From: Siphonodentalium dalli
Lineage: Eukaryota > Mollusca > Scaphopoda > Gadilida > Siphonodentaliidae
Direction of reading: 5' to 3'
Length of the DNA: 64,000 bases
NCBI GenBank assembly: GCA_032622095.1
Contig: CP136063.1
Location: 25,298,987-25,362,986 of the forward strand
Numbering within the stretch: position 1 is the stretch's first letter; each line of letters begins with the position of its first letter. This document shows, piece after piece, positions 4,951 to 57,703 of the stretch. Made by a program: the position numbers and the translations under genes. The notes beneath the pieces are model-generated. The model was not told the DNA's origin and searched no databases. It saw only the letters and a program-made list of their open reading frames with translations.

Positions 4951-5024
4951 TCTTTATTTTGATCATTTATTTCTTAAGATGGTTATATCTGTTTTATTTT
5001 GTCAACATGTTCATTATCTTGTAG

Positions 5025-6621: not shown

Positions 6622-6657
6622 CCCTAGGATAAAGATAAATATATAACAAATTACAAG

Positions 6658-6786
6658 GATGGATAAACTCAATGATTAAAGTATTATAATGATCTGTTCA
6701 ATGAGGGGTTTACATAGAGCAATGGATAAACTCAATGATTAAAGTATTATACTGATCTGTTCAATCAGGGGTTTACATAGAGCAAT
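6658..6786. repeat. 64-bp tandem duplication
   Basis: Two adjacent copies of a block that begins GGATAAACTCAATGATTAAA and ends in TTTACATAGAGCAAT. They differ at two bases. Unit copy 1 has a single copy, so the duplication followed the unit duplication. Confidence 0.9.
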
Positions 6787-29898: not shown

Positions 29899-31559
29899 GG
29901 TATCCAGCTAACTGGGACCTTGGCTAACTGGGACCTTGGCTAACTGGGACCTCAAGTCAGGCTAACTGGGACCTTGGCTAACTGGGACCTTGGCTAACTG
30001 GGACCTTCAGATATATTATTAATTATTTCATTAAAATCAATTTTTATTAAGTCATGAGATGAAAATACTTGAAAGGTTTTTGAGAAATTTGATATGTGTT
30101 CCCAAGTGATATATATTGCACTGGTGATTACAGGTGTTTTTCCTCCGATATATGACCTCAATGCATATTGTCAAAAATCGTTCAGGAAAGGACATTTTTT
30201 TAAACAATGATAAATCAATTTTTTTTACATTACTAGTGTGTTACATACTAAACTTTCTGTTAGTTATGTCTGTCATGCCATCTAATGCCATTATTAAAAT
30301 TTACTTTCCTTGTTAAGGTGGCTGGTAATGAGAAAATTTCAGAAAAAGCCATGTTCAGGAAAGGACATTTTTTAACGGAATTTTTGTCATCACTAATCAA
30401 AGAACTAAAAAAATCACTAATTTTTAATCACAGAAATAATAGCACATCTATATTATATATCATATCCTTATTGTTGAAAATACACCATATGTGACATATT
30501 TAATGGTGTTTTCTTCAATACTGGCTGTAGTTGATTTGATTTTGGTGTTTTTTTTTATTTTTTTAACGGAATGTCTCCAAAATAACAAAAATTGACATAA
30601 AATTACATATTTTTGACATTTTTACATGAAATTTTCACTAATAAGAACAGAATGTCTTAGATTATAATTACTGTATGAAACTTGTTTCCTTTGTACTATA
30701 TATTTTCTTATAATCACCTTATTATTGAGACCATTTCCTGTTTGGCACAGAGAAAATGGCAAAATAATGCACATTTCTGGTCATAAAATTGCAAAAAAAT
30801 AGTCATATTCAGCTGAAATTTACTGCTCCGGTCACATAAATATACCTTTATATGATAAAAAATGAATGGTAAGTTGGTCATACACTGAACATGAATTTAA
30901 GGGAGATATGTGTCCAATTCCTTCATGCTACACTTCCCGTGAAATCACCCCCTATCCCATTATCGTTAGATCTATATATACATGCATGTAGAACATGACA
31001 TGTATGTAAAGCTTGGAATGTCCTGCATATTTATTTTCCTACACTATATACATGAACAAACTGTATTTGACTTATTCTATATACCTGTAAACTATAACCC
31101 TGACCTATTGCATGCCAACTTGAATTTTTAACAAAGTTGGGGGGAGACCCGCAAATCCCCGGCGCCACTTTATTGCATCTTAACTGTGAATGCCCATAAT
31201 AACCATCACTTTATTGACTTTATTAACAATAAATATTCATAGAAATATATAAGATACAAATAAGATACAAATAAGAAATTAAAATAGTGACCTTCAGTTT
31301 TATAGATTGACAATATTTTTTTTTTATTAAGTCAGGTTGAAACAAATCTAAAACATTTTTGAAGCAATAACATACATAAAACAAACAATATTCTATTATC
31401 AATGTTCTATTCTACTAATATATGTAATAAATATAACCAAGGTCCCAGTTAGCCAAAGGTCCCAGTTAGCCAAGGTCCCAGTTGGTCATGGTCCCAGTTA
31501 GCCAAGGTCCCAGTTAGCCCAAGGTCCCAGTTAGCCAAGGTCCCAGTTAGCTGACATTC
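29899..31559. mobile_element. 1,661-bp TIR element with terminal CTAACTGGGACC arrays
   Basis: It lies inside the Tigger-like reading frame. CTGAGAAC occurs directly at 29,891-29,898 and at 31,560-31,567, an 8-bp target duplication. The left end (29,905-30,005) is about six copies of CTAACTGGGACCTTGG, once broken by CTCAAGTCAGG. The right end (31,440-31,554) has about seven copies in inverted orientation. The first six bases of each end (GGTATC and ACATTC) do not pair. The inside is AT-rich with no transposase. An 8-bp duplication suggests hAT-like mobilisation, which is inference. Confidence 0.85.
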
Positions 31560-31673: not shown

Positions 31674-32154
31674 GATGAATGATATGCTTTACACTGATAA
31701 CCAATAGCCTTTATACTGAGAAATGTTTTGATAAAACCCGACAATAAATCATAGTGAACCATTGTTACACTAATGAGTTGAAATCATTGTAATGTGATGT
31801 CAACCAGCTGTTCATTGAATGATAAGCCATCACTATGTAAACATGTTTCTATTCATTAAATTATTGTCGGCTCAGAAACAAAGAGATCACTGTGTTGGCC
31901 TTCTTTTTGTGTCGGCGACCTTGACACTTTATTGATAGAATTCGCGGAAGCGTCCTTTCACATTCAATAGGAATTCTAACTGCAAGTGTTTACAATCGTT
32001 TTTATTTTTACACAAAACAAATATACAAGCTTTAATAATTCATATAATTCACACAGAAATAAGGAAACATACAGGAAATGTTTGTGAACAGAAGCATGTT
32101 AGAAGAAATAGAAAAGCACTTTCGGTTTCGGTTTAGTTCACTTCCTTGTTGGGG
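31674..32154. other. Flank of Tigger relic and of the 11.3-kb element
   Basis: 31,674-31,900 is probable Tigger 5' sequence. From about 31,938 the sequence (AATTC.CGG, then CCTTTCACATT, AAACATACAGGAAATGT and GAAGCATGTTA) is a diverged direct copy of what follows the 11.3-kb element at 43,493-43,690 and 44,970-45,170. Confidence 0.7.
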
Positions 32155-32162
32155 AATTCCCG

Positions 32163-32285
32163 GGGAGTGACTAAAATGCAGAATGGGACGATGGGACGGG
32201 ACGGTATGGGACGGTATTGGGACGGTATTTGGGACGGCTTGGGACGGCTTGGGACGGTATTGGGACGGTATTAGAAAACCGGCTG
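32163..32285. repeat. GGGACGG terminal array, left
   Basis: About nine GGGACGG words spaced by TAT, TATT, TATTT or CTT. The inverted counterpart is 43,400-43,492, and a third copy ends at about 44,960. Confidence 0.95.
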
Positions 32286-32596
32286 TTTATCAATAATACA
32301 GCATGTAGCGGCATCAAAATGGTTATATATAGTCGGCATTAACATTGCGTACATGGAGCAACAATTTAATAGTCTCATTCGCCAACACAAAGCTCATATT
32401 ATCGGCTAAAAACAGACACGACGGAAATAGGCGATTACGGTCAAACGCAGAACGAAAATGTAAACACCAAATCACCCCATACATTCATATTTCCCTGTCC
32501 CACGGTGATATTTTTGCATAAAATGTTAGATTAACATCTTTTCGACATCACTGTAGCATTTTATTGACCATAATCAAGATGAAAACAATTTTTTTC

Positions 32597-35453
32597 CGGT
32601 CCTACTAAACAACGAACACAAACGAACACAAACGAACATAAACGAACACAGGTCTAAAAAGCGGAATAGAAGGGTGAAATTTGGTTTGTGGGTGCGTGTG
32701 GGTCCATTATATGTGTATGTGGTGTTATTTCCAACTTTGATGACTTATTTTTCGAGTTATAAGCATTATTTGAATGCAAAGCTACTAAACAACGAACACA
32801 AACGAACATGAGATTAGCCGTATTGCAAAGGTGTTAATAAAGGTGTTAATTAACTACCGCCTTCTCTATGGCTTATACTCTGTCTCTTTGTCACTGAGTT
32901 GTTTTGACTTAGTTAGTTTGTCTTATTATTACTTCGTTTAACTTCCCTGGCATCACACTGCTCTTTCAGTAGAGCTTCAGGTACTAGAATCAAAGTTTGT
33001 TTTATATGCAATCGAATATTTATATATTATTTTACACTGACGCAGCCCCGGCGGAACGATGGGCAGAGTTTGTTCTCCTTGAAGTCAGTGCATGGATGAT
33101 CGTCTTGGTTTTTGATGTCTTCACTCTTTCCTTTTTTTTGTCCATTTTTTTTTTGCCAGAACGGTAGTTTTGGGTATAGTTAATTGTCATCAGTTGAAGT
33201 TTGGAATTTGGAATTGTCACTCACAAAATTAAGAAGTCTTCGCATTAGTCTGTCTCGTTGTTCGGCCGTCATATTTGTTCAAATTTCGTGTCTCACTGTG
33301 CCAATACGGGTACATATAACTCTTAAGGCTATCAGAACGGTTTGATTATTTATATACAACAAAGTCAATAATGTTCAATCATCGTCATCTGGGTTTCTCT
33401 TCTTGTCGTCTGCTTGGTTTATGGCCTTCTTCCGTCTTCATAGGTTGGGTGTATCTGCTTGTCTTCTACTCGGTTGAGTTCCGGTTGAGTTTATCTTCCT
33501 GTCGTCTGCTCTTCTTCTTCTTGCGTCGGCGCATCAGTGGGACGTTGTTAGAACCACAAGAGTCATAATGTTACCTTGTGTTCACGTCCATACTTTCGGC
33601 TGTTTTTCCTAGCGTCCGAGAATTCTTGATTACTCGCTGTGTGGTCAGATAGAAACTGGTTCTGGATGTCGGCTTGCTTCTTACTAAAATACCCAGCGGC
33701 CGTTAATGACGGCCATGTGGATCTTCACGGCGCGTCGATTCCAGACGTACTTAGGGTAATTGAGTTATCGTCATCTCCCCATGGGTCCTATTAACTCTCC
33801 TGGTTTCAGTAGCTTTTCTAGGCGATACATCTGGTCTTGCTTAATCCTCAAGACCGTTCTGTTTACTCCACAGCTGTCTTACTATGTATGTATCGGCCTG
33901 GTTACTGCATATTCGTTTTGATGTCCAGTATTTCGCAATGTTGATGTGGTCAGCAGGGGCGCTAGTATGTGTGGTAAACTAGCGGCTCCCGCGACTAAGA
34001 GATTGCCTGTATTCTTCCCGGGTTGAAAGTTATGTCCCTGGGGTTGTCTTGGCACATCACTTCCAAAGATGATGCAATGCCTGATAATGTAAAATCCCCT
34101 CCACTCGAATGTCAAGCAGTTGATCAGTCACTGTTTCATTTAAATTGTCTGTAAACTCAGTCAATTTTTTTGTTAATTATATTATTAAAGGCACGGGAGG
34201 CCTTAGTTGTCGAAAATATTCATATTTGTTCCAATCACCGTAAACAGAAAAACACTAAAACGCATACAGTTTCGTTCATCGTGACGTCGTGTAAACAGCA
34301 TGCTATCATAAAGACCTACTATATATTACCTAAGCAAGAGCCTGATTGTGTTACAGAAGACAGCACCGTACGTGTTACTGGCTAATCACACACAAATGAT
34401 ATAAACGATCTTTATTAGTTCCATATCAGGAATTCAGCAACAAAGAACGCTCTTTATGTTTACCATCATAATATAAACAAACACCAGGAAAGTAACTTTT
34501 TATGCTTTTGTTTACACAATGGTCAAACATATGACAATAACATACTTTTATGCGATATTTCTTATTTGTATACGGACAAAGTCTGTCTACATTTTCTTTT
34601 TGTGTCGGTTTTTGACCGTTGGAAATTTTTCACAGCATATATACCCACTGCCAAGGACTCCCGCACCTTTAATGCTTTCATAATTGTTATTTGTCCAACA
34701 TTTCGGAATTGTTGAATTTTGTTTTCTAGCATTGAAAACTTTCGTCTTTAGTCTTTCCATAAATGTAAGGTATCGTCTGTTGTCACATATATTTGTCAAT
34801 TATGTCTGTCTGTATTTCGTCATAAATGATTTTGTTTTCTATTGTTACCAAGCCGCTCTCGCTATTGAATACTTTTCCATCTTATTGACAGTTTGATCAC
34901 TGTCTGTTTTACTTAAATTACGATTGAGATTTTCCTTAAGATGCCTGGTACATAGCGTATGCGTGTATCAGGAAAGCAAGCAGATATAGCATTTACCAGA
35001 GTGATCTCCGAGACTGAGAAAATATATATAGTCATCTCAGAGACTGACAACAATGAATCACTCACATTCACTCAAATGTTTTGTTAGCTATGCATTAAAA
35101 CGCCGACCTCTGATGTTTCCCCGTGTTTTTATTGCTATCAGTGATAAAATTGACAATCATCTTGCAGTAAAAACAAGGAGACAGAGTAAGCCGTAGTTAA
35201 TTAACACCTGCATGGTAACCTCTGCACTGCCGCTAATCTTGTGTTCGTTTGTGTTCGTTGTTTAGTAGTTTTGTATTCAAATAATGCTAATAACTCAAAA
35301 AATAAATCATAAAAGTTGGAAATAACACCACATACACATAGAATGGACCCACGCGCACCCATAAACCAAATTTCACCCTTCTACTCCGATTTTTGGACCT
35401 GTGTTCGTTTATGTTCGTTTGTGTTCGTTTGTGTTCGTTGTTTAGTAGGACCC
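32597..35453. mobile_element. CGGTCCTAC-type TIR element, copy 1 (nested, 2,857 bp)
   Basis: It starts CGGTCCTACTAAACAACG and ends with the inverted form GTTTAGTAGGACCC. Both ends have arrays of CGAACACAAA words. Left flank TTTTTTTC and right flank CTTTTTTC are an 8-bp duplication with one change. The uninterrupted sequence, inferred from the opposite arm of the host element, is ACAACTTTTTTCGTCG. Long TIRs of a few hundred bp contain a second CTACTAAACAACGAACAC block. There is no transposase and the internal frames are short. Confidence 0.85.
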
Positions 35454-35936
35454 CTTTTTTCGTCGATGGGACGGAAGCGAAATTGCAGAACGAAAATGTA
35501 AACAAACACCAAATCATCCCATGCATTCACATTTCCCCGTCCCGCGGCGATATTTTTACATAAAATGTTAGATTAACATCTTCTCGACATCATTGTAGCA
35601 TTTTAATGACCATAATCAAGATTAAAACATGTTTTTATTCGCTGATGGGACGGAACGGAAGCGGTATTAAAGCGCAGAACAACCGTAGGAAATTGCAGAA
35701 CGAAAATGTAAACAAACACCAAATCACCCCATGCATTCACATTTCACCATCCCGCGGCGATATTTTTACATAAAATGTTAGATTAATATCTTCTCGACAT
35801 CATTGTAACATTTGAATGACCATAATCAAGATGAAAACATGTTTTTTTTCGCTGATGGGACGGAAGCGAAATTGCAGAACGGGATGGGACGGTATTAGAT
35901 AGGATGGGACGGTATTATAAAACGCAGAACAGCTAA
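33114..35936. repeat. 2,823-bp direct duplication, copy A
   Basis: From GATGTCTTCACTC to GCAGAACAGCTAA. It contains most of the nested element and part of the host element. Copy B follows immediately. The copies appear almost base-identical; one difference is CATAGCGTATG against CATAGAGTATG. Confidence 0.93.
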
Positions 35937-38759
35937 GATGTCTTCACTCTTTCCTTTTTTTTGTCCATTTTTTTTTTGCCAGAACGGTAGTTTTGGGTAT
36001 AGTTAATTGTCATCAGTTGAAGTTTGGAATTTGGAATTGTCACTCACAAAATTAAGAAGTCTTCGCATTAGTCTGTCTCGTTGTTCGGCCGTCATATTTG
36101 TTCAAATTTCGTGTCTCACTGTGCCAATACGGGTACATATAACTCTTAAGGCTATCAGAACGGTTTGATTATTTATATACAACAAAGTCAATAATGTTCA
36201 ATCATCGTCATCTGGGTTTCTCTTCTTGTCGTCTGCTTGGTTTATGGCCTTCTTCCGTCTTCATAGGTTGGGTGTATCTGCTTGTCTTCTACTCGGTTGA
36301 GTTCCGGTTGAGTTTATCTTCCTGTCGTCTGCTCTTCTTCTTCTTGCGTCGGCGCATCAGTGGGACGTTGTTAGAACCACAAGAGTCATAATGTTACCTT
36401 GTGTTCACGTCCATACTTTCGGCTGTTTTTCCTAGCGTCCGAGAATTCTTGATTACTCGCTGTGTGGTCAGATAGAAACTGGTTCTGGATGTCGGCTTGC
36501 TTCTTACTAAAATACCCAGCGGCCGTTAATGACGGCCATGTGGATCTTCACGGCGCGTCGATTCCAGACGTACTTAGGGTAATTGAGTTATCGTCATCTC
36601 CCCATGGGTCCTATTAACTCTCCTGGTTTCAGTAGCTTTTCTAGGCGATACATCTGGTCTTGCTTAATCCTCAAGACCGTTCTGTTTACTCCACAGCTGT
36701 CTTACTATGTATGTATCGGCCTGGTTACTGCATATTCGTTTTGATGTCCAGTATTTCGCAATGTTGATGTGGTCAGCAGGGGCGCTAGTATGTGTGGTAA
36801 ACTAGCGGCTCCCGCGACTAAGAGATTGCCTGTATTCTTCCCGGGTTGAAAGTTATGTCCCTGGGGTTGTCTTGGCACATCACTTCCAAAGATGATGCAA
36901 TGCCTGATAATGTAAAATCCCCTCCACTCGAATGTCAAGCAGTTGATCAGTCACTGTTTCATTTAAATTGTCTGTAAACTCAGTCAATTTTTTTGTTAAT
37001 TATATTATTAAAGGCACGGGAGGCCTTAGTTGTCGAAAATATTCATATTTGTTCCAATCACCGTAAACAGAAAAACACTAAAACGCATACAGTTTCGTTC
37101 ATCGTGACGTCGTGTAAACAGCATGCTATCATAAAGACCTACTATATATTACCTAAGCAAGAGCCTGATTGTGTTACAGAAGACAGCACCGTACGTGTTA
37201 CTGGCTAATCACACACAAATGATATAAACGATCTTTATTAGTTCCATATCAGGAATTCAGCAACAAAGAACGCTCTTTATGTTTACCATCATAATATAAA
37301 CAAACACCAGGAAAGTAACTTTTTATGCTTTTGTTTACACAATGGTCAAACATATGACAATAACATACTTTTATGCGATATTTCTTATTTGTATACGGAC
37401 AAAGTCTGTCTACATTTTCTTTTTGTGTCGGTTTTTGACCGTTGGAAATTTTTCACAGCATATATACCCACTGCCAAGGACTCCCGCACCTTTAATGCTT
37501 TCATAATTGTTATTTGTCCAACATTTCGGAATTGTTGAATTTTGTTTTCTAGCATTGAAAACTTTCGTCTTTAGTCTTTCCATAAATGTAAGGTATCGTC
37601 TGTTGTCACATATATTTGTCAATTATGTCTGTCTGTATTTCGTCATAAATGATTTTGTTTTCTATTGTTACCAAGCCGCTCTCGCTATTGAATACTTTTC
37701 CATCTTATTGACAGTTTGATCACTGTCTGTTTTACTTAAATTACGATTGAGATTTTCCTTAAGATGCCTGGTACATAGAGTATGCGTGTATCAGGAAAGC
37801 AAGCAGATATAGCATTTACCAGAGTGATCTCCGAGACTGAGAAAATATATATAGTCATCTCAGAGACTGACAACAATGAATCACTCACATTCACTCAAAT
37901 GTTTTGTTAGCTATGCATTAAAACGCCGACCTCTGATGTTTCCCCGTGTTTTTATTGCTATCAGTGATAAAATTGACAATCATCTTGCAGTAAAAACAAG
38001 GAGACAGAGTAAGCCGTAGTTAATTAACACCTGCATGGTAACCTCTGCACTGCCGCTAATCTTGTGTTCGTTTGTGTTCGTTGTTTAGTAGTTTTGTATT
38101 CAAATAATGCTAATAACTCAAAAAATAAATCATAAAAGTTGGAAATAACACCACATACACATAGAATGGACCCACGCGCACCCATAAACCAAATTTCACC
38201 CTTCTACTCCGATTTTTGGACCTGTGTTCGTTTATGTTCGTTTGTGTTCGTTTGTGTTCGTTGTTTAGTAGGACCCCTTTTTTCGTCGATGGGACGGAAG
38301 CGAAATTGCAGAACGAAAATGTAAACAAACACCAAATCATCCCATGCATTCACATTTCCCCGTCCCGCGGCGATATTTTTACATAAAATGTTAGATTAAC
38401 ATCTTCTCGACATCATTGTAGCATTTTAATGACCATAATCAAGATTAAAACATGTTTTTATTCGCTGATGGGACGGAACGGAAGCGGTATTAAAGCGCAG
38501 AACAACCGTAGGAAATTGCAGAACGAAAATGTAAACAAACACCAAATCACCCCATGCATTCACATTTCACCATCCCGCGGCGATATTTTTACATAAAATG
38601 TTAGATTAATATCTTCTCGACATCATTGTAACATTTGAATGACCATAATCAAGATGAAAACATGTTTTTTTTCGCTGATGGGACGGAAGCGAAATTGCAG
38701 AACGGGATGGGACGGTATTAGATAGGATGGGACGGTATTATAAAACGCAGAACAGCTAA
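35937..38759. repeat. 2,823-bp direct duplication, copy B
   Basis: Second copy, ending in GCAGAACAGCTAAG before ATAGACCCCT. It carries a 5'-truncated second copy of the nested CGGTCCTAC element. Confidence 0.93.
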
Positions 38760-38760
38760 G

Positions 38761-40110
38761 ATAGACCCCTAAACTTGCTGTTTAGCAATAATACAGCATG
38801 TAGCAGCACCAAAATGGCTCTATATGGTCATCAGTGCAGCATTTTATTGGTGATCCCATTTTATTGACCATAATCAAGATGAAAACATGTTTTTTTTCGC
38901 TGATGGGACGGAAGCGAAATTGCAGAACGAAAATGTAAACAAACACCAAATCACCCCATGCATTCACATTTCCCCGTCCCGCGGCGATATTTTTACATAA
39001 AATGTTAGATTAATATCTTCTCGACATCATTGTAACATTTTATTGACCATAATCAAGATGAAAACATGTTTTTTTTCGCTGATGGGACGGAAGCGAAATT
39101 GCAGAACGGGATGGGACGGTATTAGATAGGATGGGACGGTATTAGAAAACGCAGAACAGCTAAGATAGACCCCTAAACTTGCTGTTTAGCAATAATACAG
39201 CATGTAGCAGCACCAAAATGGCTCTATATGGTCATCAGTGCAGCATTTTATTGGTGATCCCATTTTATTGACCATAATCAAGATGAAAACATGTTTTTTT
39301 TCGCTGATGGGACGGAAGCGAAATTGCAGAACGAAAATGTAAACAAACACCAAATCATCCCATGCATTCACATTTCCCCGTCCCGCGGCGATATTTTTAC
39401 ATAAAATGTTAGATTAATATCTTCTCGACATCATTGTAACATTTTATTGACCATAATCAAGATGAAAACATGTTTTTTTTCGCTGATGGGACGGAAGCGA
39501 AATTGCAGAACGGGATGGGACGGTATTAGATAGGATGGGATGGTATTAGAAAACGCAGAACAGCTAAGATAGACCCCTAAACTTGCTGTTTAGCAATAAT
39601 ACAGCATGTAGCAGCACCAAAATGGCTCTATATGGTCATCAGTGCAGCATTTTATTGTTGATCCCATTTTATTTACCATAATCAAGATGAAAACATGTTT
39701 TTTTTCGCTGATAGGACGGAAGCGAAATTGCAGAACGAAAATGTAAACAAACACCAAATCACCCCATGCATTCACATTTCCCCGTCCCGCGGCGATATTT
39801 TTACATAAAATGTTAGATTAATATCTTCTCGACATCATTGTAACATTTTAATGACCATAATCAAGATGAAAACATGTTTTTTTTTCGCTGATGGGACGGA
39901 AGCGAAATTGCAGAACGGGATGGGACGGTATTAGATAGGATGGGACGGTATTAGAAAACGCAGAACAGCTAAGATAGACCCCTAAACTTGCTGTTTAGCA
40001 ATAATACAGCATGTAGCAGCACCAAAATGGCTCTATATGGTCATCAGTGCAGCATTTTATTGGTGATCCCATTTTATTGACCATAATCAAGATTAAAACA
40101 ACTTTTTTAT
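38761..40110. repeat. 404-bp tandem repeats (three full, one partial)
   Basis: ATAGACCCCTAAACTTGCTG occurs at 38,761, 39,165, 39,569 and 39,973. Units include GGGACGGTATTAG, CCCGTCCCGCGGCGATAT, TCTCGACATCATTGTA and CAAAATGGCTCTATATGG. One inverted unit is at 42,125-42,480. Confidence 0.95.
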
Positions 40111-41418
40111 TAGATAGGATGGGACGGTATTAGAAAACGCAGAACAGCTAACATCTTTTCGACGTCATGATCATTAAAGATTAAAACAACTTATCTCGCT
40201 GATGGGATAGCAGCGGCAAAACGCAGAACGCAGTCCCAATCGTCCAAGGTCCCAATCGTCTGGATACCCAACGATATGGGACAGAAGAGCTATGGTAAAA
40301 CGCAGAACGATCGAAACATAACAAAATCAGTTTTTACTTACAAATTGTGTGGTAAATCCAAATATCACATGCGAGTACTATAAGAATTCACTATTAATGA
40401 ACGTACAAGGAGAAACCAATATCAAAAATGTTTGACACGGCGTTCAGTTGTTCACACTCTGTTCACGTCGGCACTGAGCTTGAGTTTACGTTGGCACTAA
40501 GCTTGTGTTTGCATAACTGGTGGCAGATGACACAGACTCTTTAGGGTGATGATATCGTCTCAGTGAGAATTACTCGCTGTTTGTGTTATGCACTTCCGAA
40601 TGGTGTTGAGTGTTCTACTATTCATGTATTTGAACGCTGTTCGAACCAGCAACATGTGGTTAATGGCAAACACATATCTCATGGGTTATATAATATAAAC
40701 TAAGAAACGCTCTTTATTATAATTACAAAACAACAAATTCATTCATATTTCGCCGTCCTATGACGACTATTCTTGACATATGTTAGATTTATATATTCAC
40801 GACATCAGTGGAGCATTTTAATCTAGTTTAAAAGAACTTGTTTCGTCGATGGGTAAAACGCAGAACGATAGCATTTTATTGACCATAATCAAGATTAAAA
40901 CAACTTGTTTCGCTGATGGGACGGAAGTTGTAAAACCCAGAACAGCTTAGGAAATTGCAGAACGAAATGGTAAACATCAACATCATTCACCGCATTCATA
41001 TTCACCCGTCCCACAGTGATGTGAGATTAAAAAAATTTCAGCTTCGTTGTTGAATTTTAATGACCACAATCAAGACTAAAACAACTTATTTCGCCAATGT
41101 GACAGCAGTCGTAAAACGCAGAAGAACCTTTGGAAATTGTAGAACGGTATGGGACGGTATTAGATGGGATAGGGCTGTATTAGAAAACGCAGAACAACTA
41201 TAAGATGGTCCCCAAAGATGGGATGGACAACACTTGCTGTTTATCGAAAATACAGCATGTAGCAGCTCTATATGGTCATCCGTGTAGCATTTTATTCAAA
41301 GAAGTGAATGGTCAAACGCACAGCAGCCGTGGTACAATGGATATGTAAACAACAAATTCGTTCATATGTCGCCATAACAACTTGCTTCGTCGATGGGACA
41401 GACACGGTAAAACGAAGA

Positions 41419-41421
<3 letters not shown>
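40111..41421. other. Diverged arm sequence of the 11.3-kb element
   Basis: It contains scattered GGGAC, CGCAGAACG and TCAAGATTAAAAC words related to the 404-bp repeats, and about 0.35 kb (40,330-40,720) without them. No coding potential is recognised. Confidence 0.6.

Positions 41422-41462
<41 letters not shown>
41422..41462. repeat. Poly-G run, 41 bases
   Basis: Uninterrupted G after AAGAACC and before TACATAGG. It sits near the centre of the large inverted repeat. It could form G-quadruplexes, and the exact length in the source genome is uncertain because homopolymers are error-prone. Confidence 0.85.
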
Positions 41463-41463
<1 letters not shown>

Positions 41464-41511
41464 ACATAGGCGTAAAAAAAATTACACATAATTTGTTTCC
41501 TTATTCATTTA

Positions 41512-41512
<1 letters not shown>

Positions 41513-41553
<41 letters not shown>
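41513..41553. repeat. Poly-G run, 41 bases (second)
   Basis: A second run of the same written length, 50 bp downstream, after CATTTAC and before TTGTCGG. Shorter runs follow at 42,007-42,027 (21) and 42,071-42,082 (12). Confidence 0.85.
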
Positions 41554-41555
<2 letters not shown>

Positions 41556-42124
41556 GTCGGAAAAAATTTGCATGTAATTTTTTCCAAATATGTATTTTCA
41601 GACTCACAACTTAAATTTTCTCTAATTTTATAGAATATGGATTAACCTTAATATCAAAATCATATATACATGAGTAGTACAATCCACATAAAATAATTTT
41701 GGATAACCACTGTCTTGGTTTACATGTGATATTGACCCCATTAACCCTCTTAATAATGCCGACAATGTCAGTGTCTACCAGTCGAATGCAGAATTCTACC
41801 CTGCGATCGCTTATCTGGCAAATTTTTACTGCAGAACTATCCCATGTAATAAACAATTTCTCCTCCAATGGTATCAGAAAACATAATAATAATAATAATC
41901 TAAACTAAGTTACCAAGCACCTTCTCGTGAATTGTATGCTCCGGTGTTTTTTTCGGTTTCTGGTAAAACCGAGTTGTTGTCCGGCTGGGGTAGATTCGAT
42001 TTTTCTGGGGGGGGGGGGGGGGGGGGGTGTCGCAATGGTCAGTGAAAAAAAACTGCAGTTTTTGTTGTTTGGGGGGGGGGGGTACCCAAACCGAAGAAAA
42101 CAGTTTTTTCCACCCTGCAATGTG
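41554..42124. other. Centre of the 11.3-kb element
   Basis: Unique-looking AT-rich sequence with an (AAT)n run at 41,884-41,899 and two shorter poly-G tracts. Open frames across the G runs are glycine or proline artefacts. Confidence 0.6.
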
Positions 42125-43492
42125 TCTGCGAAAAAAAACATGTTTTCATCTTGATTATGGTCATTAAAATGTTACAATGATGTCGAGAAGATATTAATCT
42201 AACATTTTATGTAAAAATATCGCCGCGGGACGGGGAAATGTGAATGCATGGGGTGATTTGGTGTTTGTTTACATTTTCGTTCTGCAATTTCGCTTCCGTC
42301 CCATCAGCGAAAAAAAACATGTTTTCATCTTGATTATGGTCAATAAAATGGGATCAACAATAAAATGCTGCACTGATGACCATATAGAGCCATTTTGGTG
42401 CTGCTACATGCTGTATTATTGCTAAACAGCAAGTTTAGGGGTCTATCTTAGCTGTTCTGCATTTTCTAATACCGTCCCATCCCGTTCTGCAATTTCGCTT
42501 CCGTCCCATCAGCGAAAAAAAACATGTTTTCATCTTGATTATGGTCAATAAAATGTTACAATGATGTCGAGAAGATATTAATCTAACATTTTATGTAAAA
42601 ATATCGCCGCGGGACGGGGAAATGTGAATGCATGGGGTGATTTGGTGTTTGTTTACATTTTCGTTCTGCAATTTCGCTTCCGTCCCATCGACGAAAAAAG
42701 TTGTTTTCATCTTGATTATGGTCAATAAAATGCTACAGTGATGTCGAGAAGATATTAATCTAACATTTTATGCAAAAATATCGCCGCGGGACGGGGAAAT
42801 ATGAATGCATGGGGTGATTTGGTGCTTGTTTACATTTTCGTTCTGCAATTTCCTACGGTTGTTCTGCGCTTTAATACCGCTTCCGTTCCGTCCCATCAGC
42901 GAATAAAAACATGTTTTAATCTTGATTATGGTCATTAAAATGCTACAATGATGTCGAGAAGATGTTAATCTAACATTTTATGTAAAAATATCGCCGCGGG
43001 ACGGGGAAATGTGAATGCATGGGATGATTTGGTGTTTGTTTACATTTTCGTTCTGCAATTTCGCTTCCGTCCCATCGACGAAAAAAGTTGTTTTCATCTT
43101 GATTATGGTCAATAAAATGCTACAGTGATGTCGAAAAGATGTTAATCTAACATTTTATGCAAAAATATCACCGTGGGACAGGGAAATATGAATGTATGGG
43201 GTGATTTGGTGTTTACATTTTCGTTCTGCGTTTGACCGTAATCGCCTATTTCCGTCGTGTCTATTTTTAGCCGATAATATGAGCTTTGTGTTGGCGAATG
43301 AGACTATTAAATTGTTGCTCCATGTACGCAATGTTAATGCCGACTATATATAACCATTTTGATGCCGCTACACGCTGTATTATTGATAAACAGCCGGTTT
43401 TCTAATACCGTCCCAATACCGTCCCGCGCCGTCCCAAATACCGTCCCATACCGTCCCGTCCCATCGTCCCATTCTGCATTTTAGTCACTCCC
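42125..43492. repeat. Right arm of the 11.3-kb element
   Basis: Inverted counterparts of the left-arm repeats, ending in the GGGACGG array (as CCGTCCC) and CTGCATTTTAGTCACTCCC. The region 43,040-43,492 mirrors 32,163-32,596 and also shows what the left arm looked like before the nested element entered. Confidence 0.88.
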
Positions 43493-44126
43493 AATTCCCG
43501 GGAATCTTCCTTTCACATTGAATTCTCAGAATTGCAACTGGAACTTCAGGTGTTTACAAACTCAACAAACAACCAAATAAATATTCAAATTTTAATAAAT
43601 CATACAATTCACAAATAAATATGTAAACATACAGGAAATGTGTGCCAACAGAAGCATGTTACTGAGAAGAGATAGAAAACCACGTGTGTTATGAAATTGA
43701 AAATTGCCGTCTTCGCTCTCGCGATGGTCATCTTCAACAACTTTGCATTAAGTTTTCCCATAAAAAACGTTTTTCAAGGTAAATAATTTTACAAATTGCT
43801 ATAATTTCGACACCGTCAGGTGACTTTTTACCCCTTCTCATCAACATTTTTGGCGATTTTCGTATGCATAAAAACGGAATAGAGTCCGACCCTTATGCAA
43901 ATAAACGATTAAAAAATAGTCTTTTTATGAGAAAATGGTTTGGTGCATGCATATTGTATGCAGATAGCCGAAATATGCATTTAAACGATATGCAATTAAC
44001 TGAAATTGACTGTAGTACCAACGATAACCAATGACCTGATACAATGCTTTACAAACAAAGGGGCATCGGTAAGTTAGATATATAGTACCAACGATAACCA
44101 ATGACCTGATACAATGCTTTACAAAC
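43493..44126. repeat. ~1.48-kb duplication, copy A flank
   Basis: From the TSD AATTCCCG through GAATCTTCCTTTCACATT, AAGCATGTTACTGAGAAGAG and GGAATAGAGTCCGACCC to the GATAACCAATGACC tandem copies. It is repeated at an offset of about 1,479 bp. Copy A ends where a hAT terminus begins, after TTTACAAAC. Confidence 0.9.
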
Positions 44127-44899
44127 CAGGGTTCGTACACCTCCTGAAATTCCTTGAAACTCCTTGAATTTGGTAATAACCTTTCAAGGGCCCTGGAAAA
44201 CTCCTTAAATATATAAAGGTATATGAATCTCCTGGAAAACTCCTTAAATTTTAGTATTATTGGTTCATGATGCCCTTTTAATGTTAATAATATTTATTTA
44301 GAATCTTCCGTAGTCGCCAATCTAGCGACAAATTATGTCTACCACATACAGAGCATTTATAATGAAACAGACTATAGTTGGGGTATGCAGTAACACTGGA
44401 AATCCCCAATCTATTATTGTATATTTTTACCAGGAAGAAGTTAAATTATGGTATATCTTTTGTGTTTTACACACGTGCGTGAAGCGTGAAAATTGTGTCA
44501 AATTCTTTTGTCAATAACAATGCCCGATGGGAAGTGTATTTTTAATCCGGATTGGCTAACAAAGGATCAATACAAACTATGGGTTCAGCGTCATGGTTCA
44601 GATAAACATCGTGCGTATTGTGTCCTTTGCAAAAGTTCGTTTGATGTAGCGAATATGGGTGAATCGGCGTTGGTCAGCCACACCAAATCAAAAAAGCTCA
44701 GGACAGCCAGTGGCGGACAGACTTCATCGCAGACGCTTGCCAACTTTAATTATCAAATGCCAGCATCTTCATCAAATAACAGTACCACTCCTTCTACAAG
44801 CAATGCTAGTATGACAAATCAAAATGTACCCACGCAGCAGTCGCAATTGCCTATTTCCGCGGCAGCAGCTAAAACCGATACACTGACGGCAGAGAGACG
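44127..44899 (+). pseudogene. hAT-like transposon 5' end and BED-finger ORF (truncated)
   Basis: The left terminus is CAGGGTTCGTACACCTCCTG, followed by CCTTGAAACTCCTTGAA repeats. An ATG at 44,520 begins MPDGKCIFNPDWL, with a BED-type zinc finger: CVLCKSS, then HTKSKKL. The last ligand His of the usual HSKSKKH is Leu here. A serine/asparagine-rich linker follows to AAAAKTDTLTAE. Where the catalytic part should start, at about 44,893-44,900, the sequence switches to the CCGTCCC end array of the 11.3-kb element type, so the transposase is lost. It is homologous to the longer copy at 50,664-52,084. Confidence 0.8.
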
Positions 44900-45640
44900 T
44901 CCCAAATACCGTCCCATACCGTCCCAATACCGTCCCGTCCCATCGTCCCATTCTGCATTTTAGTCACTCCCAATTCCCGGGAATCTTCCTTTCACATTGA
45001 ATTCTCAGAATTGCAACTGGAACTTCAGGTGTTTACAAACTCAACAAACAACCAAATAAATATTCAAATTTTAATAAATCATACAATTCACAAATAAATA
45101 TGTAAACATACAGGAAATGTGTGCCAACAGAAGCATGTTACTGAGAAGAGATAGAAAACCACGTGTGTTATGAAATTGAAAATTGCCGTCTTCGCTCTCG
45201 CGATGGTCATCTTCAACAACTTTGCATTAAGTTTTCCCATAAAAAACGTTTTTCAAGGTAAATAATTTTACAAATTGCTATAATTTCGACACCGTCAGGT
45301 GACTTTTTACCCCTTCTCATCAACATTTTTGGCGATTTTCGTATGCATAAAAACGGAATAGAGTCCGACCCTTATGCAAATAAACGATTAAAAAATAGTC
45401 TTTTTATGAGAAAATGGTTTGGTGCATGCATATTGTATGCAGATAGCCGAAATATGCATTTAAACGATATGCAATTAACTGAAATTGACTGTAGTACCAA
45501 CGATAACCAATGACCTGATACAATGCTTTATAAACAAAGGGGCATCGGTAAGTTAGATATATAGTACCAACGATAACCAATGACCTGATACAATGCTTTA
45601 CAAACAAAGGGGCATCGGTAAGTTAGATATATAGTACCAA
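44900..45640. repeat. ~1.48-kb duplication, copy B
   Basis: It begins inside the CCGTCCC array, repeats AGTCACTCCCAATTCCCGGG and the whole flank of copy A, and ends with the GATAACCAATGACC tandem copies. At the point where copy A has the hAT terminus, copy B reads straight on (CAAACAAAGGGGCATCGG). Confidence 0.9.
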
Positions 45641-46262: not shown

Positions 46263-48611
46263 CGGTCCTACTAAACAACGAACACAAACGAACACAAACG
46301 AACATAAACGAACACAGGTCCAAAAAGCGGAATAGAAGGGTGAAATTTGGTTTGTGGGTGTGTGTGGGTCCACTCTATGTGTATGTGGTGTTATTTCCAA
46401 CTTTGATCACTTATTTTTTGAGTTATTAGCATTATTTGAATACAAAGCTACTAAACAACGAACACAAACGAACATAAGATTAGCCGTTTTGCAAAGGTGT
46501 TAATTAACTAGGGCTTACTCTTTGCACATCTGTGAGTTGTTTTTACTGCAATGTGATTGTCAGTTTTGTCACTGATGGCAATAAAACACGGGAAACATCA
46601 GAGGTCGGCGTTTTAATGCATATCTAACAAAACATTTGAGTTGCTCTTTTTATCGACCTTATAAATCGTCGTGTGAGAATCAGATGGTTCTATCCAACAT
46701 TAATCATTTTGTTGGGAAATCGATGTTGAAATTTCGAGACGGGAATTACCAAGTAAATCGTTTTCAGTGTGTGTCGTCATGTTTCAAAATGTTAAAGCTA
46801 ACTAAAATATTATTATATCCGAAGTCTCAGTTCTAGAAACTCGCCAGTTTTATAATAAAAGACACTACGAAAAATGTGTTTAGAGATAGAACCCTTTTGC
46901 TTACGAAACCATCGTCTCGCTTCCGGATCAGAGTGCACATGGAGATAGAACTCTCTAGCCTGAATTTTTCCTCCATTTTAAGTAGTAGGCCTATGTGGTT
47001 AAATTCGACAGCATGCAGTTAATCAAGAAATATGTTGTATTTTCTCTCGCGGTTTGTGAGGGGATTGTGTTAGAGTATATGAGCGAGTGGTCACTATTCT
47101 TTGCCATTTTGGGAAACGAATGGTTGTCTCTTTCAATTTAATGGGTAAGAATGCATATATATAGGCCTTAAAATGGCGTGACGCGAAGAATAACTTCTCA
47201 CATTTTCCAGGCTCACAAGCATTCACGCACCATGGAAATGAACGAAACAATAATTTCCAATCAATCGATTATTTATATTATTCTGTCTTACTGTAAAATG
47301 TTTGTCAAATGTTTAAATATGTTATTATTTTGATTGGAATAAAATATGTTTACACTAAACATATAATATTATATTTCAACTGCAAAAACCTCAAAGGAAT
47401 AGGAACAAAAATAGGTTTGGAGCTATGTCTCGCGCACAGTATCAGACAAGCCTGGGGAAAGGTTAGGTGCACTCTAAACTAGTATTTATTATTTTCCGAA
47501 GAAGGAGCGAATATTTTCGGTAGATACACGTAACAGAATCTCCCTAATAACCAATTTCACCAAAAACAAAAACATGAAAGCCAGACTGGTTCCATCCTTT
47601 GGATTTTCGAAGGAACAACTCAGTTAATAACTAACGTTGAGGTATTTTGATAATGCTTTGGTTCACCATCTGGTAGACTGCTGGTCGCATTGATTTGTTC
47701 TCCAACAACACAATATTCTAAAGATGGTTTCTCGGTTATAGTTATTACTGTGGACGGGTACATGAGACATCTATATATAGTTCCATGCCCACAAAATATG
47801 ATCGATCAACAAACGAAAAAGGTCCGAAACATAATACATATACATGTATACGTGTGGTCTGAGATATTCTCGCTACACCAATTCAAATCAGAAAACAACT
47901 GCGCTTCCGCATTGCGGAAAGAGGCAAAACAGACACAAGTCTGGCGAACTGTCATCTCCATTATAAAACACAACAACCGATCGAACTACATAAATTTTGT
48001 TCAACTTCATGTCGCTGCAATTCGATGTCTAAACTACGACGGGACTGACCTTACCTGTAGTATCTTAAGATGGAAGTTGAACAAATTTGATGTGCAACTT
48101 TTTCGACTGATAAAAATAACGAACATAATATCCTCTATCGAGGAGAAGTGGAAAATCAAACGACGAAATTAAACTTAGAAAGAACCATATGTATGTGTGG
48201 CTATGTGCGAAACAATAGTTCGTACTTCGGATCACATTCATACATGAATTCATACATACTGCCGACCTCTGATGTTTCCCGTGTTTTTATTGCCATCAGT
48301 GACAAAACTGACAATCACCTTGCAGTAAAAACAACTCACAGATGTGCAATTAACAAGGAGACAGAGTAAGCCGTAGTTAATTAACACCTTTGCAGTGTGG
48401 CTAATCTTATGTTCGTTTGTGTTCGTTGTTTAGTAGTTTTGTATTCAAATAATGCTAATAACTCAAAAAATAAGTGATCAAAGTTGGAAATAACACCACA
48501 TACACATAGAGTGGACCCACACGCAACCACAAACAAAATTTCACCCTTCTATTCCGCTTTTTGGACCTGTGTTCGTTTATGTTCGTTTGTGTTCGTTGTT
48601 TAGTAGGACCC
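46263..48611. mobile_element. CGGTCCTAC-type TIR element, copy 2 (complete, 2,349 bp)
   Basis: It starts CGGTCCTACTAAACAACG and ends CGTTGTTTAGTAGGACCC. TTCCTTGC lies directly outside on both sides (46,255-46,262 and 48,612-48,619), a perfect 8-bp duplication. The inverted arms are about 350 bp long, with CGAACACAAA arrays and CGACCTCTGATGTTTCCC. The central ~1.6 kb differs from copy 1, and its 160-codon frame at 47,690-48,172 has no domain. It sits between fragments of one protein family at 45,875 and 49,951. Confidence 0.92.
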
Positions 48612-50663: not shown

Positions 50664-52084
50664 CAGGGTTCCCGCGGGTCCTTGAAACCCTTAAATTCCA
50701 GTACCAGCCCTTGAAAACCCTTGAATGTGAACCTAATATATAAACACAAGATAGAAGGTATACACCAGGTTATAACGCAATGCGAACACACGATGTCAAC
50801 TTGCATAGAGACATACGGAACACAGTGACCTAACGACCTGTGACCAACTGACATAGAATGTAAATAGTGGCTATTACGCGCTATGAATTTCACACTGTTA
50901 ACAGTAGTAACAATCGATCGAGTAATTATGTATTGCTCATTGTGATTGGTCAATGACTATCCCCTCCAGCTATTAACAAATCAAATTGCACGTAACATAT
51001 CCGAAGTCGGCTGAAAACACAGCGTGTCACCAATGCTCGAAATAGAAATATGACAGGAGGGAAATACAAATTCAATAATAAATGGCTCTCAAATCAAGAG
51101 TATTCTGCATGGCTACGCGCAGTAGCCGACAACAAACACAATGCAAGGTGCTTATTCTGTCAAACGAATATAGACCTCTCTGTCATGGGGGAGCATGCCA
51201 TTAAAAGTCATACTAAAAGTGACAAGCATAAAAAAGCCGTCAGAGAAAGGGGGAACTTAATAACCATTTCTTCTGCCTTGAATTCCACTGCCAGCTCAGA
51301 CCAACAACAACAACAAGAGCAGCGCAATACTAGTACTACCCAACCTGTAACTATTAGCACTGTGTCGTCCCTGGTGACCAGCAGCGATGTACTCAAGGTT
51401 GAACTTTTGTGGTGTGCAAACATGTGTGCAAGTCATTACAGCTACAACAGCTGTTCAACTGTATCTAAAGTATTTCATCAAATGTTTCCTGATAGACAAA
51501 TAGCTAGGCAGCTGAGTTTAGGGGAAAACAAATCGATGTATTGAACTGTGTTTGGTCTTGGTGCATATTACCAGAATATTACTCTGGACAATATAAAATC
51601 TTCAAACATGAACTATATTGTCCTTATGTTTGATGAGTCCCACAACAGGTCATTAGAAAAGAAACAGCTAGATGTGTATATAAGATACTGGGACGTCACA
51701 ATCAGTGTGAAAACAGTATATTTCAACTCGGAATTTCTAGGGCATGGACGCGCCGATCACTTACTGCCTGTCTTGTTGTCAAAAATCGAAAAGGTGGATG
51801 CCTTCCATAAAATGATTCAACTATCAATGGACGGGCCCAATGTGAACTGGAAGGTATGGGAGTTGATGCTGTCAACCATAGCTGATAAATCTGAAAATTC
51901 GAAGCTTCTGAATGTTGGAAGTTGTGGTTTACATACTGTCCATAACTCGTTTAAGAACGGTTTCGCCAATGATAGTGTTGCAAAAGTCTTGAAATCTTTG
52001 TTCTGGCTTTTTAAAGGTGCACCAGCTCGATGGGATGACTATATTCATCAATATGTTTACAGACGGCAACATATATCTTGTTGA
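50664..52084 (+). pseudogene. hAT-family transposase with BED finger (one in-frame stop, 3' truncated)
   Basis: Terminus CAGGGTTCCCGCGGG at 50,664, then CCTTGAAACCC repeats. The ATG at 51,050 begins MTGGKYKFNNKWLS. A BED-type zinc finger follows: CLFCQTN, then HAIKSHTKSDKH (C2HC/H2 ligands intact). After a Q/T/S-rich linker, LLWCANMCASHYSYNSC and FPDRQIARQLSLGENK lead to TGA at 51,542-51,544. The same frame continues with FGLGAYYQNIT, VLMFDESHNR (probable first catalytic Asp), LDVYIRYWD, SMDGPNVNWK, NVGSCGLHTVHNSFK and KGAPARWDDY. The match to a common animal hAT/ZBED transposase family is by recalled motif order. The frame leaves the family after about 52,065, so the C-terminal dimerisation part and right terminus are missing. 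Confidence 0.8.
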
Positions 52085-54690: not shown

Positions 54691-54937
54691 CAAGCCTTGA
54701 AATAGGGTGTCTGTCATTTGCAGAATGAGGTCCCCAGAGGGTGAATTTAGTGATAGCATAGCGGGCTAGCATCACCAAATTCACCCTCTGGGAACCTCAT
54801 TCTGCTGAGGTGTAAGCAGAATGAGGTCCCCAGAGGGTTAATTTGGTGATGCTAGCCCGCTATGCGGGGTAGCATCACTAAATTCACCCTCTGGGGACCT
54901 CATTCTGCAAATGACAGACACACTATTTCAAGGCTTG
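54691..54937. mobile_element. Palindromic MITE (247 bp) with 8-bp TSD at a splice donor
   Basis: The ends are CAAGCCTTGAAATAG and CTATTTCAAGGCTTG. Flanks GGTATGTT at 54,683-54,690 and 54,938-54,945 are a perfect 8-bp duplication. The inside is two successive hairpins, each made of GCAGAATGAGGTCCCCAGAG and its complement with GCTAGC..GCGGG loops. Confidence 0.92.
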
Positions 54938-56506: not shown

Positions 56507-57703
56507 CAGGGTTGGGGTAATCGTAATCAGTAATTGTAATCAAAGTAATCGATTACAAAATTTGGAGTAATCATCTGTAATCAGTAATCATGACATTTCT
56601 TGATTACAAGTAATCGTAATCGTAATCGATTACATTCAAATGTACCTGTAATCACGATTACATTTTGATTACTTTTTGATTACTTTTACTAAAATATCCG
56701 TATGGATGGCTATTGGATACTCATAGTCTCATACTGTGGTACTATGGAGCGTGCAAAGATACATACACCATATTAGAAAGTTAATACAATTTTGTCATGT
56801 CTTATGTTAGTGGTACAGTGTGTATGTACATTCTGGCAGTGGACACAGATAACAACACACAATTGTTGAATACAGCATGAATAGCAATAAACTTGTGATA
56901 CAGACAAATGAAATGTTCTAATATGAATAAATAGGGTAGCCAACTTCAACTAAGATTAAATTGAATTGGGATTGCTGCAGACAATGGCTGTAAAGTCACA
57001 CTGGTACAATAGGGCTAATTAACTGAACAAAGAATGTGTGAAGTACATCGGTAGACCTAATTAGCTGGTTTGTCATTTACTGCACCCATGGAGTTAAGCC
57101 TAATTTAATCCTCATCAGGATTAACAACGGATGATCATCAAATAAATCTTAATGTTATCTTCATTGTGTTGGGTATTGAATCTAACAGAACATCCAAATA
57201 TTTTATAATTGTTTCTGGTGATATTTTCATAAATATTATGCGTTCGTTTGAATGCATGTAAGAAAATTTAAAATATATTAAAAATTATTTACAGAAATAA
57301 ATACAAATAAAACATAATGTATTCCCAATAAGTTGGTGTATAACTTCATGATGAAACCTTTCCAATACATGTAAATGTAAAAAAAAGTTTTTATGTTTTT
57401 TGCTTGCATCTTTCTATTGTTTCAGTCGTTTCTTGTTTCCATGTTATGCAGTGATGTCTTTATTCAATCATATTAGACATGTTAATTTGAATTATTTCAT
57501 TATTTATTCCTATGCGATCAAAATGGTTGGAAACCAACAATTGTAATAAGATGTAATCAAAAAGTAATCGATTACATTTACTAAAGTAATTGTAATCATA
57601 ATCGATTACATTGAAAAAAATGTAATCAGTAATCGTAATCATGTAAATCAAAAGTAATTGTAATCGTAATCGATTACATTGGTATGTAATCGCCCCAACC
57701 CTG
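56507..57703. mobile_element. Non-autonomous hAT element (1,197 bp)
   Basis: Ends CAGGGTTGGGGTAAT and GCCCCAACCCTG, flanked directly by ACTCAAGC at 56,499-56,506 and 57,704-57,711, a perfect 8-bp duplication. Each end has many GTAATCGATTAC and TAATCAGTAAT words, themselves palindromic. The middle is AT-rich with no transposase. The CAGGG start and 8-bp duplication fit hAT. Confidence 0.93.

What the first reader, a model, noticed from the sequence alone, without database searches (positions are those of the whole stretch)
32163..43492. An 11.3-kb composite element: GGGACGG-array ends, 8-bp TSD, no transposase
Seen: inverted ends starting GGGAGTGACTAAAATGC, each followed by an array of GGGACGGTAT words, and AATTCCCG directly outside both ends. 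Between them are only repeats, a nested second element and poly-G runs. Without the nested copy and the tandem duplication the element would be roughly 5.7 kb. Inference: a large non-autonomous element, perhaps hAT-like because of the 8-bp duplication, whose end arrays could be transposase-binding sites. I know of no described family with this end.
Basis: partly seen in the sequence, partly recalled or inferred. Interest (0 to 1): 0.8.

Follow-up and report, generated by a model that had tools for sequence, protein, structure and literature searches.

The report
Non-autonomous foldback transposon with repeat-array ends
This is a large "jumping gene" with no enzyme of its own that could be found, ending in stacks of short repeated words where such an enzyme probably binds; it is real, but its build matches a known group of foldback transposons.

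Summary
Inverted ends GGGAGTGACTAAAATGC lie at 32163 and 43492, each followed by GGGACGG words mostly 10-12 bp apart, with AATTCCCG directly outside both. The outermost ~0.4 kb of the two arms agree at 410 of 413 aligned bases, with gaps only in the array. Without the nested element and one duplication unit the element is 5,650 bp.

The hAT guess is not supported; a foldback architecture is. The window holds four insertions of three families with one plan: G-rich terminus, short tandem array, 8-bp target duplication. They are el1; el2 (one copy nested in el1, one at 46263-48611); and el3 (29899-31559), whose empty site restores a CENP-B-type helix-turn-helix frame. None of their 8 ends fits the hAT pattern YARNG.

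The closest published match is the Phantom/Muta branch of Mutator-like elements: 8-9-bp duplications, TIRs over 100 bp, 9-15-bp subterminal tandem repeats, heterogeneous interiors (PMC5225508). No transposase was found and no host genome is held, so the superfamily is inferred. Most likely: non-autonomous type-2 foldback MULE families, new members of a known kind.

The parts
32155..32162 (.). 8-bp target-site duplication of element 1, left copy (AATTCCCG)
32163..32596 (+). Left TIR of element 1, outer piece: 17-bp terminus, array of 9 GGGACG words, then ~320 bp non-array
   Evidence: (410 of 413 aligned bases identical to the right end)
32597..35453 (+). Nested element 2a: ends CGGTCCTACTAAACAACG / GGGTCCTACTAAACAACG, 4 ACGAACA words at 10-bp spacing at each end, ~270-bp TIRs, target duplication TTTTTTTC/CTTTTTTC (7 of 8); the uninterrupted right arm of element 1 shows the empty site with CTTTTTTC
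35454..35936 (+). Continuation of the left arm of element 1 (35454-35881 matches 43087-42662 inverted, 413 of 426 bases)
35937..38762 (+). Second copy of a 2823-bp tandem duplication (first copy from 33114), 1 difference in 2826 positions, 3-bp GAT shared at the junction; holds a left-truncated copy of element 2a
38512..40127 (+). Inner left arm: four 404-bp tandem units, each with a degenerate copy of the terminal module (GCAGAACGGGATGGGACGGTATTAG)
40128..42124 (.). Middle domain of element 1 with poly-G runs; no Pfam match above cut-off in the two of its 11 pieces scanned
42125..43079 (-). Inner right arm: inverted copies of the same units (period ~387)
43080..43492 (-). Right TIR of element 1, outer piece: same terminus, 7 GGGACG words
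43493..43500 (.). 8-bp target-site duplication of element 1, right copy (AATTCCCG)
44909..45605 (.). Repeat of right end + duplication + flank (43429-44126), 99.4% identical; source of the third end at 44971
29899..31559 (.). Element 3, same architecture: unlike outer 7-mers (GGTATCC/GAATGTC), then 6 and 7 AACTGGGACC words, mostly 16 bp apart; target duplication CTGAGAAC; inserted in a minus-strand CENP-B_N helix-turn-helix frame
46263..48611 (.). Element 2b: same ends as 2a, no interior match to 2a of 120 bp or more, target duplication TTCCTTGC

Best explanation
Element 1 is a non-autonomous, type-2 foldback DNA transposon, most likely mobilised in trans by a Mutator-like (MULE) transposase of the Phantom/Muta kind. 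Shown: precise inverted ends, an 8-bp target duplication, end arrays with words mostly 10-12 bp apart, and long modular inverted arms whose repeats carry degenerate copies of the terminal module; no coding capacity was detected in what was scanned. Inferred: the array words are transposase-binding sites repeated about once per helical turn; the transposase pairs the two ends, cuts and pastes, leaving the 8-bp duplication; the arms grew by tandem duplication of the subterminal segment. Elements 2 and 3 in the window belong to the same architectural class but to different sequence families.
For: Exact ends and duplication. Outer arms identical at 410 of 413 aligned bases, with three gaps (21 bases) in the array. 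Six internal copies of the terminal module besides the two ends (one of the six lies in the tandem-duplicated copy). Four insertions of three families with 8-bp duplications and array ends. The element 3 empty site restores an open CENP-B_N helix-turn-helix frame. The element 2a empty site is read in the uninterrupted arm. Published parallels: 14 Muta families with 8-9-bp TSD, 12 of 14 with TIRs >100 bp, 10 of those 12 with 9-15-bp subterminal tandem repeats, derivatives with heterogeneous interiors (PMC5225508, sections 6-7 read). Muta1 is called a type-2 foldback and has a 10-bp terminal motif plus 9 copies of a 12-bp repeat with 3-4-bp spacers. Tm1, with a Phantom-like transposase, has 8-10-bp TSDs in 45 of 53 elements, arrays of mostly 13-15-bp units and unlike 7-bp outer motifs (PMC3169594, passages); element 3 also has unlike outer 7-mers. 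Tm1's motifs are CGGTTAA and CCTACCC; if the second is written on the top strand (the passages do not settle it), it reads inward as GGGT..., like the CGGT/GGGT pair of element 2.
Against: No transposase, MULE domain or autonomous copy was found; only 64 kb could be read and no host genome is held. 8-bp duplications and GG termini also fit Merlin (PMC8101967, passages). A hAT-like element in the same window (56507-57703) also has repeated words near its ends and an 8-bp duplication, so array ends plus 8 bp are not diagnostic of MULEs. All four duplications here are 8 bp, whereas Muta families mix 8 and 9 bp and Tm1 mostly has 9.
Confidence: 0.6

Rival explanations
1. A non-autonomous Merlin (IS1016-like) element family.
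For: Merlin has conserved terminal 5'-GG, 8-9-bp duplications and TIRs of 24-462 bp, and some Symbiodinium families carry tandem repeats of 12, 52 or 163 bp (PMC8101967, passages). Element 1 starts GGG at both ends and has an 8-bp duplication.
Against: Element 2 starts CGG at one end and element 3 starts GA at one end. The passages seen do not describe arrays of short words next to both termini.
Confidence: 0.14
2. A hAT element.
For: 8-bp duplication. A hAT-like element in the window also has repeated words near its ends. ORF fragments that look hAT-like to me from memory lie at 44490-44963 and 50996-52084 (no Pfam match above cut-off). Element 3's duplication fits nTnnnnAn.
Against: None of the 8 ends of elements 1, 2a, 2b and 3 fits YARNG; AATTCCCG, CTTTTTTC and TTCCTTGC do not fit nTnnnnAn (both rules recalled). 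The hAT-like element at 56507 fits YARNG at both ends, but this control is imperfect: of the four other 8-bp candidates, 1632 and 5594 fit at one end and 26611 and 54691 at neither. The ORF at 44490 sits beside a CAGGGTTCGTACA end at 44127 and meets the third GGGAGTGAC end only through the repeat junction at 44908/44909.
Confidence: 0.09
3. A DNA transposon of another or undescribed superfamily with 8-bp duplications (P, Zisupton, Novosib or new; duplication lengths of these recalled), with foldback ends reached by convergence.
For: Foldback ends arose in more than one superfamily: Galileo is a P-superfamily element (PMC3688188 and PMC3573991, passages). No transposase is known here.
Against: P elements start CA (recalled); none of these ends do.
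Confidence: 0.15
4. A satellite/tandem-repeat block with accidental edges or an assembly artefact, not a transposon.
For: Repeats dominate the interior; the 2823-bp duplication (1 difference) and the repeat holding the third end could be assembly or haplotype errors.
Against: Exact ends with an adjacent 8-bp duplication, and the same pattern in three further insertions including one with a frame-restoring empty site.
Confidence: 0.02

Closest known systems
Muta1-Muta14 (Mutator-like elements of Aedes aegypti, grouped with Phantom; PMC5225508 sections 6-7 and passages; PMC6446971 passages)
   Same: 8-bp (or 9-bp) duplications; in Muta1 and Muta5 a short terminal motif followed by a tandem array of short words; TIRs over 100 bp in 12 of 14; non-autonomous derivatives with unrelated interiors
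   Different: Muta families have known transposases; Muta1 words are 12 bp with 3-4-bp spacers, Muta5 words 15 bp; Muta1 and Muta5 are 3.2 and 3.5 kb, element 1 is 11.3 kb with satellite-like arms of 177-404-bp units; Muta sequences were not compared here
Tm1 Mutator/Foldback family of root-knot nematodes (PMC3169594, passages)
   Same: Composite TIRs with arrays of mostly 13-15-bp units in variable number, 8-10-bp duplications, unlike outer 7-mers (as in element 3)
   Different: Most commonly 9-bp duplications, a known Phantom-like coding member, much shorter elements (class means 431-2593 bp)
Tetris, foldback transposon of Drosophila virilis (PMC4079207, section 10 and passages)
   Same: Long TIRs with tandem ~220-bp repeats, suggested to come from the flanking domain; variable middle domain without apparent coding capacity; 8-10-bp duplications
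   Different: No array of ~10-bp words next to the terminus is mentioned in the parts seen; its superfamily is also unproven
Galileo (P-superfamily foldback; PMC3688188, PMC3573991, passages)
   Same: Long internally repetitive TIRs; transposase-domain binding sites shown in the repeats
   Different: 7-bp duplications, P-type transposase with THAP domain
TU elements of the sea urchin and FB of Drosophila (recalled; cited in PMC4079207)
   Same: Foldback arms with short tandem repeats; TU recalled to have 8-bp duplications

Membership tests
Type-2 foldback transposon | Long composite TIRs containing short tandem repeats of variable number | tested here: met
   9 v 7 GGGACG words; outer arms 410/413 identical
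Type-2 foldback transposon | Target-site duplication flanking the arms | tested here: met
   AATTCCCG on both sides
Phantom/Muta MULE | 8-10-bp target duplication | tested here: met
   8 bp in 4 of 4 insertions; in element 2a 7 of the 8 bases match
Phantom/Muta MULE | Subterminal tandem repeats of about 9-15 bp behind a short terminal motif | tested here: met
   mostly 10-12 bp (element 1), 10 bp (element 2), mostly 16 bp (element 3); present in 10 of the 12 long-TIR Muta families, so not universal
Phantom/Muta MULE | MULE DDE transposase (FLYWCH or SWIM finger in Muta) in an autonomous member | not testable with these tools
   No host genome held. 9 of 41 stop-free pieces of at least 55 aa from the four interiors were scanned; none above a Pfam cut-off
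hAT | Terminus YARNG (recalled) | tested here: not met
   0 of 8 ends of the four insertions
hAT | 8-bp duplication with nTnnnnAn preference (recalled) | tested here: inconclusive
   Length met; preference met by 1 of 4 insertions (element 3), not by element 1
Merlin | Terminal 5'-GG | tested here: inconclusive
   Element 1 GG at both ends; elements 2 and 3 at one end each
Merlin | 8-9-bp duplication | tested here: met
Merlin | IS1016/IS1595-type DDE transposase in an autonomous member | not testable with these tools
   no host genome
P superfamily | Terminus starting CA (recalled) | tested here: not met
   0 of 8 ends

The most novel reading that the evidence does not exclude
Elements 1, 2 and 3, with unlike words but the same plan (G-rich terminus, CTAAA or CTAAC within positions 9-14, array of about 10- or 16-bp period, 8-bp duplication), are clients of one transposase lineage that reads array periodicity more than word sequence, or of an undescribed superfamily. 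The terminal likeness of elements 1 and 2 is suggestive only: 10 of 17 bases with the right end (9 with the left), reached by 654 of 200,000 random 17-mers of the window, or 1,859 if a shift of one base is allowed; elements 1 and 3 share only 8 of 17, elements 2 and 3 only 5-7.
Probability: 0.1. Interest if true: 0.6.

Novelty: new member of a known kind. Interest (0 to 1): 0.35.

Why it matters
Foldback elements with array ends can stay unclassified because their partner enzyme is unknown, as for Tetris. A window with four insertions of three such families, one nested in another and one with a frame-restoring empty site, gives exact ends and an 8-bp duplication with which the autonomous partner can be sought in the host genome. 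The arms also suggest a transposon turning its subterminal module into satellite-like units of 177-404 bp, a process proposed for Tetris.

Tried and rejected
hAT assignment rejected on termini. The third end at 44971 was considered as an independent insertion or a 'coding relative' (an ORF lies just inside it) and rejected: right end, duplication and flank are repeated together at 99.4%, and the ORF belongs to a CAGGGTTCGTACA-ended, hAT-like fragment starting at 44127 (identification from memory).

Host genome search failed: none held. Scans of public collections: GGGAGTGACTAAAATG gave 5 viral contigs, none with a GGGACGG word within 300 bp, so read as chance; single patterns from elements 2, 1 and 3 gave none in viral contigs, and from elements 2 and 1 none in genome contigs. 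Rfam: no match at gathering threshold. Pfam on 10 window ORFs, 10 pieces and 10 more ORFs, that is, part of what the window holds: no transposase domain above cut-off except CENP-B_N at the element 3 target. Literature: 0 papers for four literal end strings; 0 for a Phantom/MULE/mollusc search asking 5 of 6 terms; a foldback/MULE/bivalve search asking 3 of 5 terms returned only PMC5225508. These cover open-licence PMC only; Repbase could not be searched. Passages of PMC9587614 (Kolobok) were seen and not used.

Limits of the end scans. The first seeded scan gave 31 rows at 8 bp with at least 9 of 16 terminal identity, 26 of them pairings of arm repeats next to AACATGTT; at 10 bp it counted 26 rows with at least 10 of 16, not listed. 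The later scans left out pairs wholly within 32700-43200 for that reason. With seeds, 5 rows remain at 8 bp. Without seeds, rows with at least 11 of 16 (at least 13 in brackets) are 64 (4) at 7 bp, 38 (9) at 8 bp, 10 (3) at 9 bp and 7 (1) at 10 bp; I read most as chance or tandem repeats. Element 2a is in none of these lists because its duplication is 7 of 8 and the scans ask for exact repeats.
Full report
What was checked. Element 1 spans 32163-43492 (11,330 bp) with AATTCCCG on both sides. Removing the nested element (2857 bp) and one duplication unit (2823 bp) leaves 5650 bp.

Ends and arms. Over the outermost ~0.4 kb the two ends align with 410 of 413 bases identical plus three gaps, 21 bases in all, in the array region. 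The array has 9 GGGACG words on the left and 7 on the right; successive GGGACGG words lie 10-12 bp apart after a first step of 5, that is, about one helical turn. Past the nested insertion the left arm continues and matches the right arm at 413 of 426 bases. The inner arms are made of ~177-404-bp units in inverted orientation. Besides the two ends, a pattern search for the terminal module found six degenerate internal copies, five on the + strand and one on the - strand; one of the five (38697) belongs to the tandem-duplicated copy. The arms therefore look grown from the subterminal segment itself, as suggested for TIR-220 of Tetris (PMC4079207, passages).

The third end. GGGAGTGACTAAAATGC also lies at 44971 with the same duplication, because 43429-44126 is repeated at 44909-45605 (99.4%). 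The first copy of the flank is broken at 44127 by a CAGGGTTCGTACA-ended fragment with an ORF (44490-44963; no Pfam match above cut-off; hAT-like by my recollection), and the junction 44908/44909 joins that ORF to the array. I read this as one insertion seen twice, either truly duplicated or as two haplotypes joined in assembly.

Other elements of the same plan. Element 2 occurs nested in element 1 (32597-35453) and at 46263-48611, with the same ends; the self-comparison shows no interior match of 120 bp or more between the two (which listed rows of at least 120 bp). Its termini are CGGTCCTACTAAACAACG (left) and GGGTCCTACTAAACAACG (right), with 3-4 ACGAACA words exactly 10 bp apart. Target duplications are TTCCTTGC (8 of 8) and TTTTTTTC/CTTTTTTC (7 of 8); for the nested copy the uninterrupted right arm of element 1 reads CTTTTTTC at the homologous place. 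Element 3 (29899-31559) has 6 and 7 AACTGGGACC words, mostly 16 bp apart, unlike outer 7-mers, and the duplication CTGAGAAC. It interrupts a minus-strand frame whose upstream piece matches CENP-B_N (E 0.00016, 21.7 bits, cut-off 21.2); joining the flanks at one copy of the duplication gives a continuous MSSKRKRNDLSLADKYEVIKLLEQKFTQTEIAKKLGSQSQVSRIQPKKDEIIRLFESK.... This independently confirms the 8-bp duplication for this architecture. The same listing shows no match of 120 bp or more between elements 1, 2 and 3 apart from the shared boundary of the nested copy.

Controls. Seeded scans for inverted ends flanked by exact direct repeats, leaving out pairs wholly within 32700-43200, give 5 rows at 8 bp with at least 9 of 16 terminal identity: element 1, its third-end pairing, element 2b, element 3 and a 247-bp palindromic element at 54691. 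They give 5 rows at 7 bp, 2 at 9 bp, none at 10 or 11 bp, and 9 at 6 bp, five of these being shifted readings of the same elements. An unseeded scan gives 38 rows at 8 bp with at least 11 of 16, 9 of them with at least 13: element 1 (two rows), element 2b, 54691, and candidates at 1632 (two rows), 5594, 26611 and 56507. Of those other 8-bp candidates, 56507 fits YARNG at both ends, 1632 and 5594 at one end, 26611 and 54691 at neither.

Coding capacity. Of the 62 stop-to-stop ORFs of at least 90 aa in the window, four lie in element 1, two of them the same ORF in the two duplication copies. Of 41 stop-free pieces of at least 55 aa in the four interiors, nine were scanned; the best Pfam match was 15.4 bits against a cut-off of 25. 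The repeat arms were not scanned. No transposase was found in what was scanned.

What it most likely is. Muta families of Aedes aegypti combine 8-9-bp duplications, TIRs over 100 bp (12 of 14), 9-15-bp subterminal tandem repeats (10 of those 12) and non-autonomous derivatives with foreign interiors; Muta1 is called a type-2 foldback (PMC5225508, sections 6-7). A later survey groups Muta with Phantom and lists 8-10-bp duplications and TIRs of 18-613 bp or none (PMC6446971, passages). Tm1 has arrays, 8-10-bp duplications, unlike outer 7-mers and a Phantom-like transposase (PMC3169594, passages). The three families here fit that group better than hAT (no end fits YARNG) and somewhat better than Merlin (GG termini only in part; some Merlin families also carry tandem repeats). 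The superfamily remains inferred: a hAT-like element in the same window (56507-57703, CAGGG ends, ACTCAAGC duplication) also has repeated words near its ends, so this architecture alone is not proof.

Mechanism. Inferred, by analogy with Galileo, where THAP-domain binding sites were shown in the TIR tandem repeats (PMC3688188, abstract and passages): each array word is a binding site, repetition raises occupancy, the transposase pairs the ends and inserts with an 8-bp stagger. None of this was tested here.

Verdict. The feature is real and its end letters were not found in the open-licence papers searched, but its kind is known. Interest 0.35.

Noticed in passing
29899-31559: Element 3, an array-ended element with an 8-bp duplication inserted in a CENP-B-type helix-turn-helix coding frame; the empty site restores the frame.
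   Followed up: yes
32597-35453 versus 32163-43492: The nested element 2a has TIRs 245/269 identical (element 2b 231/240), while the outer arms of its host element 1 are 410/413 identical: the later insertion looks older. Arm-to-arm gene conversion in element 1, or unlike TIRs in the incoming copy, would explain it.
   Followed up: partly
43429-45605: Right end, target duplication and flank of element 1 repeated at 99.4%, joined through a truncated CAGGGTTCGTACA-ended fragment (from 44127); possibly two haplotypes joined in the assembly.
   Followed up: partly
56507-57703: hAT-like element without a listed ORF of 90 aa or more: ends CAGGGTTGGGG, duplication ACTCAAGC, many GTAATC/GATTAC words near the ends, so array-like ends occur in another kind of element in this window.
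   Followed up: partly
17227-18167: 941-bp element with long matching inverted ends (TAGTCCAAGTCTTCTTGTAC...) and a 9-bp duplication TTATGGAAT.
   Followed up: no
1-9239: A roughly 4-kb segment repeated at 97-99% identity (1-924 = 3684-4607; 1-1521 = 7716-9239; 2679-4607 = 6722-8639), with a GDSL-hydrolase-like ORF (Pfam E 2.1e-08) and 8-bp-duplication candidates at 1632 and 5594.
   Followed up: no
31946-32119 and 43501-43683: The two flanks of element 1 are similar to each other (diverged repeat). By my own reading the right flank leads, about 190 bp on, into MKLKIAVFALAMVIFNNFALSFPIKNVFQ before a GTAAAT, like a signal-peptide exon, so element 1 may sit just upstream of a gene.
   Followed up: partly
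54691-54937: 247-bp near-palindromic element with duplication GGTATGTT.
   Followed up: no
50996-52084: ORF fragments that resemble a hAT-type transposase to my eye; no Pfam match above cut-off.
   Followed up: no
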